A DNA stretch of 64,000 bases from Fuscovulum blasticum DSM 2131 (lineage in GTDB: Bacteria > Pseudomonadota > Alphaproteobacteria > Rhodobacterales > Rhodobacteraceae). The DNA lies in the NCBI RefSeq assembly GCF_003034965.1, contig NZ_PZKE01000003.1:223673-287672 (forward strand), read 5' to 3'. Below the pieces are notes generated by a model. The model saw only the letters and a program-made list of their open reading frames with translations, was not told the origin of the DNA and ran no database searches. Shown in pieces: positions 58,110 through 64,000 of this stretch. A program made the translations under genes and the position numbers. How positions within the stretch are numbered: the stretch's first letter is position 1; every line of letters starts with the position of its first letter.

Positions 58110-58125
58110 TGGCACGTTCCTTGCT
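58110..58125 (+). promoter_or_regulatory. Sigma-54 promoter of nifE
   Basis: TGGCACGTTCCTTGCT, a full match to the -24/-12 consensus, 29 bases before the nifE ATG. Confidence 0.93.
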
Positions 58126-62010: not shown

Positions 62011-62301
62011 ATGCCGATGACAGGGCTGACGCGCGGGGGAACGGCATGGGTGCCGGTGTTCCTGATGGCGATCGACGTCGAGAAGTGTATCGGCTGCGGC
62101 CGCTGCTTCAAGGTCTGCGGGCGCGGGGTGATGGGCCTGCGCGGGCTGACCGAAGACGGCGATCTGGTCGATGCCGAGGACGACGACGAGGAAATCCTCA
62201 AGAAGGTGATGGTGCTTGAGGCGGCGGGAAACTGCATCGGCTGCGGCGCCTGTGCCCGCGTCTGCCCGTCAGGGTGCCAGAGCCATGCCCCTGCGGACTG
62301 A
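62011..62301 (+). CDS. fdxB: Nif-specific 2[4Fe-4S] ferredoxin III
   Basis: A 96-residue ferredoxin. Cluster motifs CIGCGRCFKVC (Cys26, 29, 32, 36) and CIGCGACARVC (Cys75, 78, 81, 85) are separated by an acidic insert (DLVDAEDDDEEILKK) typical of FdxB. It probably supplies electrons for cofactor or cluster assembly rather than to nitrogenase itself. AAAGGAGAAGGATC lies directly before the ATG, the best ribosome-binding site in the cluster. Confidence 0.95.
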   Translation: MPMTGLTRGGTAWVPVFLMAIDVEKCIGCGRCFKVCGRGVMGLRGLTEDGDLVDAEDDDEEILKKVMVLEAAGNCIGCGACARVCPSGCQSHAPAD

Positions 62302-62872
62302 GGCAAGGGTCGCGCCCCCCGAGGGCGCCGCCGAAAGCCGCCGCGACTTTGGTGAGATCCTTGCCCATGCGCTGGCCGAACGGGCGGCGGGGCGGGGCAG
62401 CCTGCCGGTGCTGCTGGGGGTGGATGGCCCCGATCTGGCCACGCTGCGCGACCGTTGGGCGCCCGGCCTTGCGCTGCCCGACCTGACCGAAGCCGCGCCC
62501 GCGCCCCTGCCGGAGCAGCAGGCGGTGATCACCCTGATCCTGTGGCGGGCCGGCCGGGCCGATGCCACCGCCCGTGCGCTGGCCAGGATCATTGCCCGCC
62601 GCGCTCTGGAGCCGCGGCACCTGTGGGAAGACCTTGGCCTGTCGAACCGCCCCGCGCTGACCGCGCTGATCGCCCGCCACCTGCCGGGCCTTGCGGCGGC
62701 CAACGGGCAGAAGATGCGCTGGAAGAAGTTCCTTTATCGGCAGGTCTGTCTGGACGACGGCCTGTCGCTGTGCCTGTCGCCGGTCTGCGACGATTGCCCG
62801 GAATGGGCGCTGTGCTTCGCCCCCGAAGAGGCGGCGACCCCCGCCGCCCCCGCCACGGCGGCGCACCCCTGA
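62285..62872 (+). CDS. nifQ: Molybdenum-processing protein NifQ
   Basis: A 195-residue protein that donates molybdenum as a Mo-Fe-S cluster for FeMo-co. The diagnostic C-terminal part is KMRWKKFLYRQVCLDDG followed by C-x4-C-x2-C-x5-C (CLSPVCDDCPEWALC). The N-terminal half is helical with HLWEDLGLSNRPALTALIARHLPGLA. Its ATG at 62285 overlaps fdxB by 17 bases, so it is translationally coupled. Confidence 0.95.
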   Translation: MPLRTEARVAPPEGAAESRRDFGEILAHALAERAAGRGSLPVLLGVDGPDLATLRDRWAPGLALPDLTEAAPAPLPEQQAVITLILWRAGRADATARALARIIARRALEPRHLWEDLGLSNRPALTALIARHLPGLAAANGQKMRWKKFLYRQVCLDDGLSLCLSPVCDDCPEWALCFAPEEAATPAAPATAAHP

Positions 62873-63031: not shown

Positions 63032-63047
63032 TGGCATGCTTCTTGCT
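63032..63047 (+). promoter_or_regulatory. Sigma-54 promoter of the iscA-nifU unit
   Basis: TGGCATGCTTCTTGCT: GG and GC are 12 bases apart, with T in place of C at the end of TGGCAC. It is 43 bases before the iscA-like ATG. Confidence 0.85.
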
Positions 63048-63089
63048 TGATCCTTCGCAGACCCACACCGCCCTGCAAGGAGGCCCGTG

Positions 63090-63410
63090 ATGATCGCCCT
63101 GACCGAACCCGCCCGCACCGCCATCAAATCGGCCATCGACGGCGCCGGGCAGAAGGTGGCTGGCCTGCGCCTGATGGTGCAGGGCGGCGGCTGCGCGGGG
63201 CTGAAATACGGCATGGCGCTGGAGCTTGAGGCGCAGCCCGACGATGCGGTGGTGGAGTTCGGCGGCGTCACCGTGCTGATCGACCCGGCCAGCCGCGACC
63301 ACCTGACCGGCACCACCATTGATTTCGTCACCGGGCTGGAAGGTGCGGGCTTCGTCTTCGACAACCCCAATGCCCGGTCGTCCTGCGGCTGCGGCAAGTC
63401 GTTCTGTTAA
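63090..63410 (+). CDS. iscA: IscA/HesB-like Fe-S assembly protein, nif-associated
   Basis: A 106-residue A-type Fe-S carrier. It starts MIALTEPARTAIKSAIDG; the cluster cysteines are in GGGCAGLKYGM and SSCGCGKSFC at the C-terminus, the standard three-Cys pattern. It would accept or store Fe-S clusters for nitrogenase. An ATG at 63090 is preferred over the GTG one codon before, with AAGGAGG seven bases upstream. nifU follows after 13 bases. Confidence 0.92.
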   Translation: MIALTEPARTAIKSAIDGAGQKVAGLRLMVQGGGCAGLKYGMALELEAQPDDAVVEFGGVTVLIDPASRDHLTGTTIDFVTGLEGAGFVFDNPNARSSCGCGKSFC

Positions 63411-63423
63411 GGGGACCAAAGCG

Positions 63424-64000
63424 ATGTGGACCTACAGCCCCGCCGTCACCGACCATTTCCTGAACCCGCGCAATGCCGGGGCGCTGGCCGATGCCAATGC
63501 GGTGGGCGAGGCCGGGTCGCTGGACGCCGGCGATGCGCTGCGGCTGACCCTGCGCGTCAACCCCGAGACGCGGGTGATCGAGGCGGCAGGGTTCCAGGCC
63601 TTCGGCTGCGGTCCGGCCATCGCGGTGTCGTCGGTGCTGACCGAACTGGTCATCGGCAAGACCGTGGATCAGGCCGCCCGGCTGACCGGCGGCGACATCG
63701 CCGCCCGGCTGGACGGGCTGCCGCCGGAAAAGGCCCATGCGCCGGCCCTGGGCAAGGCGGCGCTGGCTGCGGCGCTGCGCGGCTGGTGCGGGGGGGCAGG
63801 TCCGGCGGCGGCCCCCGGCGCGGGCGTCTGCGGCGGCTGCGCCGGGGTTGATCTGGCGCGCGCCGAGGGTCTGATCCGCGCCGACCGGCTGACCACGCTG
63901 CCGGGCCTGTTGCGGGCGCTGGGCGCGGGCGACAGTTGCAGCCTGTGCCGCCAAAGCCTGCAATCGCTGCTGGCGCGGGTCAATGCCGCGATGCTGGCCG
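63424..64000 (+). CDS. nifU: NifU Fe-S scaffold with altered cysteines, partial
   Basis: The frame runs off the right edge (192 residues seen). Residues 1-120 are the IscU-like domain (MWTYSPAVTDHFLNPRNAGALADAN), residues 130-185 the ferredoxin-like middle domain; the C-terminal Nfu domain would lie beyond. Against the known NifU pattern (Cys35, Cys62, Cys106) the sequence has Ala35 (GSLDAGDAL), Cys62 (FGCGPAIA) and Ala106 (PPEKAHAPAL). The middle domain keeps Cys172 and Cys175 (SCSLC); its first pair is CGGC at 136/139 instead of C-x-C at 137/139. Identity is firm from the surrounding alignment; how it assembles clusters is in doubt. Confidence 0.93.
   Translation, partial: MWTYSPAVTDHFLNPRNAGALADANAVGEAGSLDAGDALRLTLRVNPETRVIEAAGFQAFGCGPAIAVSSVLTELVIGKTVDQAARLTGGDIAARLDGLPPEKAHAPALGKAALAAALRGWCGGAGPAAAPGAGVCGGCAGVDLARAEGLIRADRLTTLPGLLRALGAGDSCSLCRQSLQSLLARVNAAMLA

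What the first reader, a model, noticed from the sequence alone, without database searches (positions are those of the whole stretch)
63424..64000. NifU has lost two of three scaffold cysteines in its IscU-like domain
Residue by residue, the position of Cys35 is Ala (GSLDAGDAL instead of GSLSCGDAL) and that of Cys106 is Ala (KAHAPAL instead of KMHCSV). Only Cys62 is retained. The surrounding sequence is conserved, so the frame and alignment are secure; the bases read GAC GCC GGC and CAT GCG CCG. In standard NifU all three cysteines hold the transient cluster. This NifU therefore either works mainly through its ferredoxin and (off-window) C-terminal domains, or relies on another scaffold, such as the IscA-like protein encoded 13 bases upstream. 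The ferredoxin pair is also shifted to CGGC.
Basis: partly seen in the sequence, partly recalled or inferred. Interest (0 to 1): 0.75.

Follow-up and report, generated by a model that had tools for sequence, protein, structure and literature searches.

The report
NifU stripped of its scaffold cysteines
The nitrogen-fixation protein NifU in this bacterium lacks two of the three cysteines that in standard NifU hold newly built iron-sulfur clusters, and related NifU have lost more (the ferredoxin domain, and in ten genomes the sulfur-donor partner NifS as well), so these bacteria likely mature nitrogenase with only NifU's tail domain, probably fed by the general SUF machinery.

Summary
In detail: NifU codons 35 and 106 read Ala, codon 62 reads Cys, and the ferredoxin motif is CxxC instead of CxC. 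It is not isolated. Of 234 NifU rows examined, 31 lack Cys35; on a 74-row tree with the cysteine columns masked, the C35-less rows form one group. All 31 keep the CxxC of the C-terminal Nfu domain; 29 lack the ferredoxin domain. Ten genomes (eight Rhodovulum, one MAG, Rhodothalassium) also lack NifS, with nifV directly behind nifU. All 24 genomes checked keep nifD and SUF. Three of the NifS-less Rhodovulum have published acetylene-reduction activity. Selection is altered: the N-domain, in canonical relatives more constrained than the Nfu domain, here evolves as fast or faster, yet stays under purifying selection. The window protein is an early stage: its ferredoxin domain is present but is the most diverged part. 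Best reading: NifU is being converted from an IscU-type scaffold into an Nfu-type [4Fe-4S] site, likely supplied by SUF (here perhaps still by NifS). The group includes Cereibacter (Rhodobacter) sphaeroides. SUF supply is inferred; no biochemistry was possible.

The parts
63424..64000 (+). nifU, residues 1-192 of 323; runs off the contig end, C-terminal part at the end of contig C25
63433..63780 (+). IscU-like N-terminal domain (NifU_N, residues 4-119); fold predicted kept, scaffold cysteines 35 and 106 gone
   Evidence: Pfam PF01592 125-127 bits; model matches IscU structures, TM 0.79 to 2z7e
63526..63528 (+). codon 35, GCC = Ala in place of the scaffold Cys35
63607..63609 (+). codon 62, TGC = Cys62, the only scaffold cysteine kept
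63739..63741 (+). codon 106, GCG = Ala in place of the scaffold Cys106
63829..63975 (+). BFD-like [2Fe-2S] domain, C136/C139 (CxxC instead of CxC) and C172/C175; the most diverged domain
   Evidence: Pfam PF04324 27.2 bits, cut-off 26; 42% identity to canonical
63087..63410 (+). IscA-like gene (iscA-nif / iscN), cysteines intact, 13 bases before nifU
63032..63047 (+). sigma-54 type -24/-12 promoter pattern TGGCATGCTTCTTGCT ahead of iscA-nifU
   Evidence: one of two exact matches in the window, 0.09 expected by chance
62216..62872 (+). nifQ (start uncertain)
   Evidence: PF04891 153 bits
53874..62301 (+). nifHDKENX, DUF269 gene and ferredoxin, open frames, same order as in relatives
   Evidence: names of nifH, K, E, N, X by similarity and by eye

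Best explanation
This NifU lacks two of the three cysteines of its IscU-like scaffold and groups with relatives that have also lost the ferredoxin domain and, in ten genomes, the partner NifS, so the protein likely works through its C-terminal Nfu domain, which would hold a [4Fe-4S] cluster on the CxxC of a dimer and pass it to nitrogenase proteins. Shown: the residue losses, one group on the tree, absence of the ferredoxin domain and of NifS in sub-lineages, retention of the CxxC in every C35-less row examined, and of nifD and SUF in every genome checked. Inferred: the clusters are made mainly by the housekeeping SUF scaffold and handed to NifU, which has become an Nfu-type carrier; in the lineages that keep NifS, including this one, NifS may still supply sulfur. 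The N-terminal domain keeps its predicted fold and purifying selection and likely serves as a dimerisation or partner-docking module. The co-loss suggests that the ferredoxin cluster normally serves the N-terminal scaffold rather than the Nfu domain.
For: Of 234 rows, 31 lack Cys35; of these 31, all keep the Nfu CxxC, 3 keep Cys62, 7 keep Cys106, 2 keep the ferredoxin domain; no ferredoxin-less row keeps Cys35 (a few rows are the same protein twice). With the three cysteine columns masked, the 26 C35-less rows of a 74-row tree are one side of a branch (94/87; 95% of 200 bootstrap trees); fewest changes: C35 1, ferredoxin domain 2, C62 3, C106 4; the window protein branches second from the canonical side. 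NifS (TIGR03402) is over cut-off in 14 of 24 distinct genomes; the 10 without are all C35-less, and in 10 of 10 of their loci a homocitrate-synthase (nifV-like) gene follows nifU directly (two tested, both over the nifV cut-off). Those ten genomes hold one NifU_N/IscU protein each, this NifU. nifD is over cut-off in 24 of 24, SufBD in 24 of 24. C290 and C293 are kept in 26 of 26 tree rows. Median dN/dS N-domain/C-domain: 0.09/0.25 in canonical, 0.38/0.29 and 0.21/0.16 in two C35-less groups. Published: acetylene reduction by R. tesquicola, R. steppense and R. strictum (PMC9412634), three of the ten. Published precedent: in Paenibacillus polymyxa SufCDB is the scaffold for nitrogenase and the Nfu-only YutI a carrier with essential CxxC (PMC8038749).
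Against: Cys62, D37, K103 and H105 remain in this protein, so some metal binding by the N-domain is not excluded. NifS is kept here with its catalytic cysteine. In the Paenibacillus precedent a NifS-like protein is required and deleting YutI only halves activity. In A. vinelandii the full protein could not be reconstituted without the core [2Fe-2S], which may point to a role for the ferredoxin domain beyond the N-site (PMC13382767), and NifQ, whose gene is present here, is proposed to be fed mainly from N-terminal NifU (PMC11605450). The N-domain stays under purifying selection, so it does something; and it is no faster-evolving in the NifS-less group. The clustering of lost residues around the three sites is modest (16 of 21 against 20 of 45, p 0.019; 13 of 18, p 0.056 without the cysteines). 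SUF occurs in canonical genomes too. C35 was lost once on the tree, so the order of losses rests on few events. The genome also has a separate Nfu protein (C3:142186). Seven C35-less genomes have a second weak NifU_N hit, not this one.
Confidence: 0.65

Rival explanations
1. NifS-to-Nfu direct assembly: the Nfu domain is itself the assembly scaffold, NifS supplies sulfur directly, and SUF is not involved in this organism.
For: NifS is intact and adjacent in this genome and in Cereibacter, SW2, Phaeovulum and Consotaella. [quoted passage not shown] that paper not read).
Against: Ten genomes of the same group have no NifS over cut-off and keep nifD; three of them are measured diazotrophs.
Confidence: 0.25
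2. Neutral decay: nitrogen fixation is dispensable in this organism and NifU is simply degenerating.
For: Only 1 of 13 genomes of the genus has a nif-type NifU; NifU is among the least conserved Nif proteins.
Against: nifHDKEN are 67-97% and nifS 66-72% identical to the relatives compared, and a NifB-like and a NifS gene are intact; a perfect sigma-54 pattern stands ahead of iscA-nifU; the Nfu CxxC is kept in 31 of 31; pairwise dN/dS of the N-domain is at most 0.60 in 50 pairs from sister groups; relatives with more extensive loss reduce acetylene (PMC9412634).
Confidence: 0.08
3. Residual or alternative scaffold: the N-domain still binds a cluster or zinc through Cys62, Asp37, His105 and perhaps a partner's residue, so its role is altered rather than lost.
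For: These residues are kept in the window protein; the fold is predicted intact.
Against: In the 26 C35-less tree rows C62 is kept in 3, K103 in 3, H105 in 4, C106 in 6; D37, however, in 18.
Confidence: 0.15
4. IscA-nif has taken over as scaffold.
For: Adjacent gene, cysteines intact in the 26 loci that hold it (three are repeats of a genome).
Against: Equally intact beside canonical NifU, so no sign of a change in role; A-type proteins are usually described as carriers (recalled).
Confidence: 0.08

Closest known systems
NifU of Azotobacter vinelandii (IscU + ferredoxin + Nfu; NCBIfam NifU_proper)
   Same: Same operon setting, same three-domain layout in the window protein, C-terminal CxxC kept
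   Different: Cys35 and Cys106 are Ala, ferredoxin CxC is CxxC; full length scores 249.6 bits, below the 273.3 cut-off; related proteins lack the ferredoxin domain and in ten genomes NifS
Nfu-type carriers (NfuA, YutI of Paenibacillus polymyxa)
   Same: CxxC as the cluster site; in P. polymyxa SufCDB as scaffold with Nfu-only YutI as carrier serve nitrogenase (PMC8038749, passages read)
   Different: A cysteine-poor IscU-fold domain is still fused in front; encoded in the nif cluster behind a sigma-54 pattern; in P. polymyxa a NifS-like protein is required
NifU of Cereibacter (Rhodobacter) sphaeroides, 246 aa (P0123)
   Same: Cys35 and Cys106 lost, Nfu CxxC kept
   Different: Cys62 also lost and no ferredoxin domain
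NifU of Rhodovulum species
   Same: Cys35 and Cys106 lost, Nfu CxxC kept, IscA-nif beside it
   Different: All three cysteines and the ferredoxin domain lost, no NifS over cut-off in eight genomes

Membership tests
NifU_proper (TIGR02000, three-domain NifU) | score over the curated cut-off (273.3 bits) | tested here: not met
   full-length P0002 249.6 bits; canonical relative P0004 420.8; P0160 (S35, S62) 323
NifU_proper (TIGR02000, three-domain NifU) | three scaffold cysteines 35, 62, 106 | tested here: not met
   A35, C62, A106
NifU_proper (TIGR02000, three-domain NifU) | ferredoxin domain with CxC...CxxC | tested here: not met
   domain present just over the Pfam cut-off, motif CxxC...CxxC
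NifU_proper (TIGR02000, three-domain NifU) | C-terminal Nfu domain with CxxC | tested here: met
   PF01106 51.7 bits, C290/C293
NifU_proper (TIGR02000, three-domain NifU) | nif operon setting next to iscA-nif and nifS | tested here: met
IscU-type scaffold | IscU fold | tested here: met
   predicted model matches IscU structures, E 2.3e-13, TM 0.79 to target
IscU-type scaffold | transient cluster assembled on the N-domain | not testable with these tools
   needs biochemistry
Nfu-type carrier | cluster site is the CxxC of an Nfu domain only | tested here: inconclusive
   CxxC kept in 31 of 31 C35-less rows, but Cys62 and the ferredoxin cysteines remain in this one
Nfu-type carrier | receives clusters from SUF or ISC | not testable with these tools
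   SUF genes present in 24 of 24 genomes; transfer untested

The most novel reading that the evidence does not exclude
A whole clade of diazotrophs, including Cereibacter sphaeroides, matures nitrogenase without any dedicated iron-sulfur scaffold: NifU has become a nif-regulated Nfu carrier with a dead IscU domain, SUF supplies its clusters, and in Rhodovulum NifS itself has been discarded. The order of losses (Cys35, ferredoxin domain, NifS) shows that NifU's ferredoxin cluster and NifS serve the IscU-like site and not the Nfu site.
Probability: 0.45. Interest if true: 0.85.

Novelty: new variant of a known kind. Interest (0 to 1): 0.7.

Why it matters
The current model has clusters built on the IscU-like domain of NifU with NifS, helped by a catalytic [2Fe-2S] cluster, and then moved to the Nfu domain (PMC13382767, passages). 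Here these parts are missing, singly or together, in bacteria that keep nif genes and in three measured cases reduce acetylene. That makes two open questions directly testable: what NifU's permanent ferredoxin cluster is for, and whether an Nfu site plus the housekeeping machinery is enough. It also bears on efforts to put nitrogenase into eukaryotes, where NifU is described as essential (PMC13382767): a two-domain NifU, perhaps even without NifS, may do.

Tried and rejected
Sequencing or frame error: rejected (two- and three-base codon differences, open frame, cluster of 9 sequences). A second intact IscU or NifU in the genome: none found (likewise one hit each in the ten NifS-less genomes). 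A genome-contig scan with the single protein found no relative; the allowed second scan with a profile (A3) gave 63 loci, of which 55 were tabulated; left out were L121 and L125-L131, partial or remote matches. L081, a C-terminal fragment, was dropped from the tree. The 74 tree rows are my choice: 54 named loci, the window protein and 19 of the other proteins held. IQ-TREE codon models ran, but no omega value was found in their output, so only pairwise Nei-Gojobori values are used; pairs with N-domain dS of 1 or more were left out (canonical 15 of 45, Cereibacter group 1 of 15, Rhodovulum group 0 of 36). Rhodobacter capsulatus NifU1, a well-studied relative, did not appear by name in the listed parts of three protein searches (120 rows each of 1455, 542 and 5635 hits); its domain state is not known here. 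The third search, for NifU reduced to the Nfu domain, listed short Nfu proteins of several Rhodobacteraceae; their gene context was not looked at, so no case is claimed. The strict sigma-54 pattern was found ahead of iscA in this window and in 13 of 26 other loci: 5 of 5 canonical but only 8 of 21 C35-less loci (three of these 21 repeat a genome); this is against an unchanged promoter across the clade, unless the others differ slightly from the pattern. Two family-survey matches (G349 with stops inside; G103 covering positions 94-225 only) were dropped from the count of 12 nif-type NifU. In one search five rows with all three scaffold cysteines do not show CxxC in the alignment: three have gaps there and two show C-W at the two columns; these were not followed. 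Whether this group is already described: ten paper searches listed no paper whose title or abstract start tells of the loss, and the passages read of five papers (PMC6925177, PMC13382767, PMC11605450, PMC8038749, PMC4999443) and of PMC9412634 do not; old subscription papers on R. sphaeroides nifUSVW and R. capsulatus nifU are not held (one tried), so earlier mention of a shorter NifU cannot be excluded.

Full report
Observation. The last 577 bases of the window hold the start of nifU, open in one frame. Aligned with solved IscU structures and with 119 other homologues, position 35 is Ala (GCC), 62 is Cys (TGC) and 106 is Ala (GCG); all 119 others have Cys at the three sites. Asp37, Lys103 and His105 are kept. 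The ferredoxin motif is CxxC...CxxC (C136, C139, C172, C175). The window ends at a contig end; the C-terminal 109 residues, with an intact Nfu CxxC (C290, C293), lie at the end of contig C25, followed by nifS and the start of nifV. The full 323-residue protein is in the database as P0002, listed with 9 member sequences. The genome has no other NifU_N/IscU protein; it has one further protein with an Nfu domain (C3:142186).

It is shared by a group. A survey of 393 family genomes, each with its own genus code, found a match in 14; two are partial and were dropped, leaving 12 nif-type NifU: 8 C35-less, including the window's genome, and 4 canonical (sequences). Only 1 of 13 genomes of the window's own genus has one. 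Among 234 rows, 31 lack Cys35; of these 3 keep Cys62, 7 keep Cys106, 2 keep the ferredoxin domain, and 31 keep the Nfu CxxC; no ferredoxin-less row keeps Cys35. These rows are the best-scoring 120 of each of two searches plus four proteins from genomes, so they are biased to near relatives and a few repeat each other. Named members: Cereibacter sphaeroides (source name), C. ovatus, C. azotoformans (record name Luteovulum), C. changlensis, Rhodobacter sp. SW2, Phaeovulum veldkampii and vinaykumarii, nine Rhodovulum including strain P5, Rhodothalassium salexigens and Consotaella salsifontis; the last two are not Rhodobacteraceae (recalled).

Order of losses. On a 74-row tree of the N- and C-domains, built without the three cysteine columns, the 26 C35-less rows are one side of a branch (94/87; 95% of 200 bootstrap trees). 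From the canonical side come first P0160 (S35, S62, C106, ferredoxin domain kept) with P0162 (S35, ferredoxin domain lost), then the window protein (A35, C62, A106, ferredoxin domain kept), then SW2/Phaeovulum veldkampii, Consotaella, Cereibacter and, with P. vinaykumarii, Rhodovulum. Several end branches are long, the window's among them (0.37), so exact places are unsure. Fewest changes: Cys35 lost once; ferredoxin domain twice, both inside the C35-less group. NifS (TIGR03402) is over cut-off in 14 of 24 distinct genomes and not in 10: eight Rhodovulum, MAG ZodW and Rhodothalassium (26 handles given, two repeat a genome by their identical coordinates; other cysteine-desulfurase-like proteins match below cut-off, 388 bits at most against 530.75). 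In 10 of 10 of these loci a gene with the homocitrate-synthase start motif follows nifU directly; the two tested are nifV over cut-off. The ten genomes have one NifU_N protein each, the C35-less NifU. nifD is over cut-off in 24 of 24 and SufBD in 24 of 24.

Selection. Median pairwise dN/dS for N-domain and C-domain is 0.09 and 0.25 in ten canonical Rhodobacteraceae (30 of 45 pairs used), 0.38 and 0.29 in six NifS-bearing C35-less genomes (14 of 15), 0.21 and 0.16 in nine NifS-less ones (36 of 36); the median ratio of N-domain to C-domain dN is 0.31 (range 0.15-0.74), 1.55 (0.90-2.80) and 1.04 (0.64-2.11). So the N-domain has lost its special constraint but is not free. Of 66 N-domain positions near-invariant in canonical NifU, 21 are kept in fewer than 35% of the C35-less rows; 16 of these 21, against 20 of the other 45, lie within seven residues of the three cysteine sites (p 0.019; 13 of 18, p 0.056, without the cysteines), a modest clustering. 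C290 and C293 are kept in 26 of 26. Identity of the window protein to canonical relatives is 65% (N), 42% (ferredoxin) and 62% (C), against 90, 90 and 76% among canonical proteins: the ferredoxin domain has diverged most. The model of the window protein (mean pLDDT 76.7, nine-sequence alignment) matches IscU structures over the N-domain.

Is the pathway alive? The order nifHDKENX-DUF269-fdx-nifQ-iscA-nifU-nifS is seen in 3 canonical and 7 C35-less loci (in one further canonical genome nifHDK lie apart). A NifB-like gene (radical SAM plus FeMo-co domain) is on C25. The window has exactly two perfect sigma-54 patterns, before nifE and before iscA-nifU, 0.09 expected; the same strict pattern stands before iscA in 5 of 5 canonical but only 8 of 21 C35-less loci. 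NifS keeps its catalytic cysteine in 17 of 17 loci that have it and IscA-nif its cysteines in 26 of 26; three genomes occur twice in both counts. Three Rhodovulum type strains of the NifS-less group reduce acetylene at 278, 523 and 4066 nmol per mg dry weight per hour (PMC9412634; abstract, passages and section 3.3 read). That paper names nifU, nifV and nifW; the string nifS does not occur in its text. R. strictum has a second nif operon; R. tesquicola and R. steppense have one.

Mechanism. [quoted passage not shown] The group described here lacks the first site wholly or in part, mostly lacks the core domain, and partly lacks NifS, but in the rows examined never lacks the last site. The simplest reading is that the Nfu site is loaded from elsewhere, most likely SUF. 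In Paenibacillus polymyxa SufCDB is the scaffold and the Nfu-only YutI a carrier for nitrogenase; there, however, a NifS-like protein is required, and loss of YutI halves activity (PMC8038749, passages read). In the NifS-less Rhodovulum the sulfur would have to come from another desulfurase; desulfurase-like proteins are present below the NifS cut-off. The step from SUF to NifU is inferred. The retained N-domain is unlikely to be only a NifS dock, since it is under comparable constraint in genomes without NifS.

Limits. No biochemistry; most genomes are drafts; C35 loss is one event on the tree; R. capsulatus NifU1 was not seen; older literature on the short NifU of R. sphaeroides could not be read.

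Noticed in passing
window 58110-58125: Second perfect sigma-54 type pattern, just upstream of nifE, so nifENX and iscA-nifU each seem to have their own nif promoter.
   Followed up: no
G051, G091, G111, G397, G415, G416, G417: A second, weak NifU_N hit (23-39 bits, about 80-90 positions), perhaps SufU-like, in seven C35-less genomes; absent in the window's genome.
   Followed up: no
P0233, P0234, P0236, P0238: Short Nfu-only 'NifU family' proteins (79-104 aa) close to nif-type Nfu domains in Mangrovicoccus, Tropicimonas and Alloyangia.
   Followed up: no
genus of the window: Only 1 of 13 genomes in the genus carries a nif-type NifU, so the nif cluster was either gained by this species or lost in the others.
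   Followed up: no
L075 (Phaeovulum vinaykumarii) nifU, 284 aa: The linker between the two domains is longer than in the other ferredoxin-less NifU, possibly a remnant of the ferredoxin region without its cysteines.
   Followed up: no
upstream of iscA in 13 C35-less loci: The strict sigma-54 pattern that stands ahead of iscA-nifU in all five canonical loci is missing or altered there, for example in Cereibacter.
   Followed up: no
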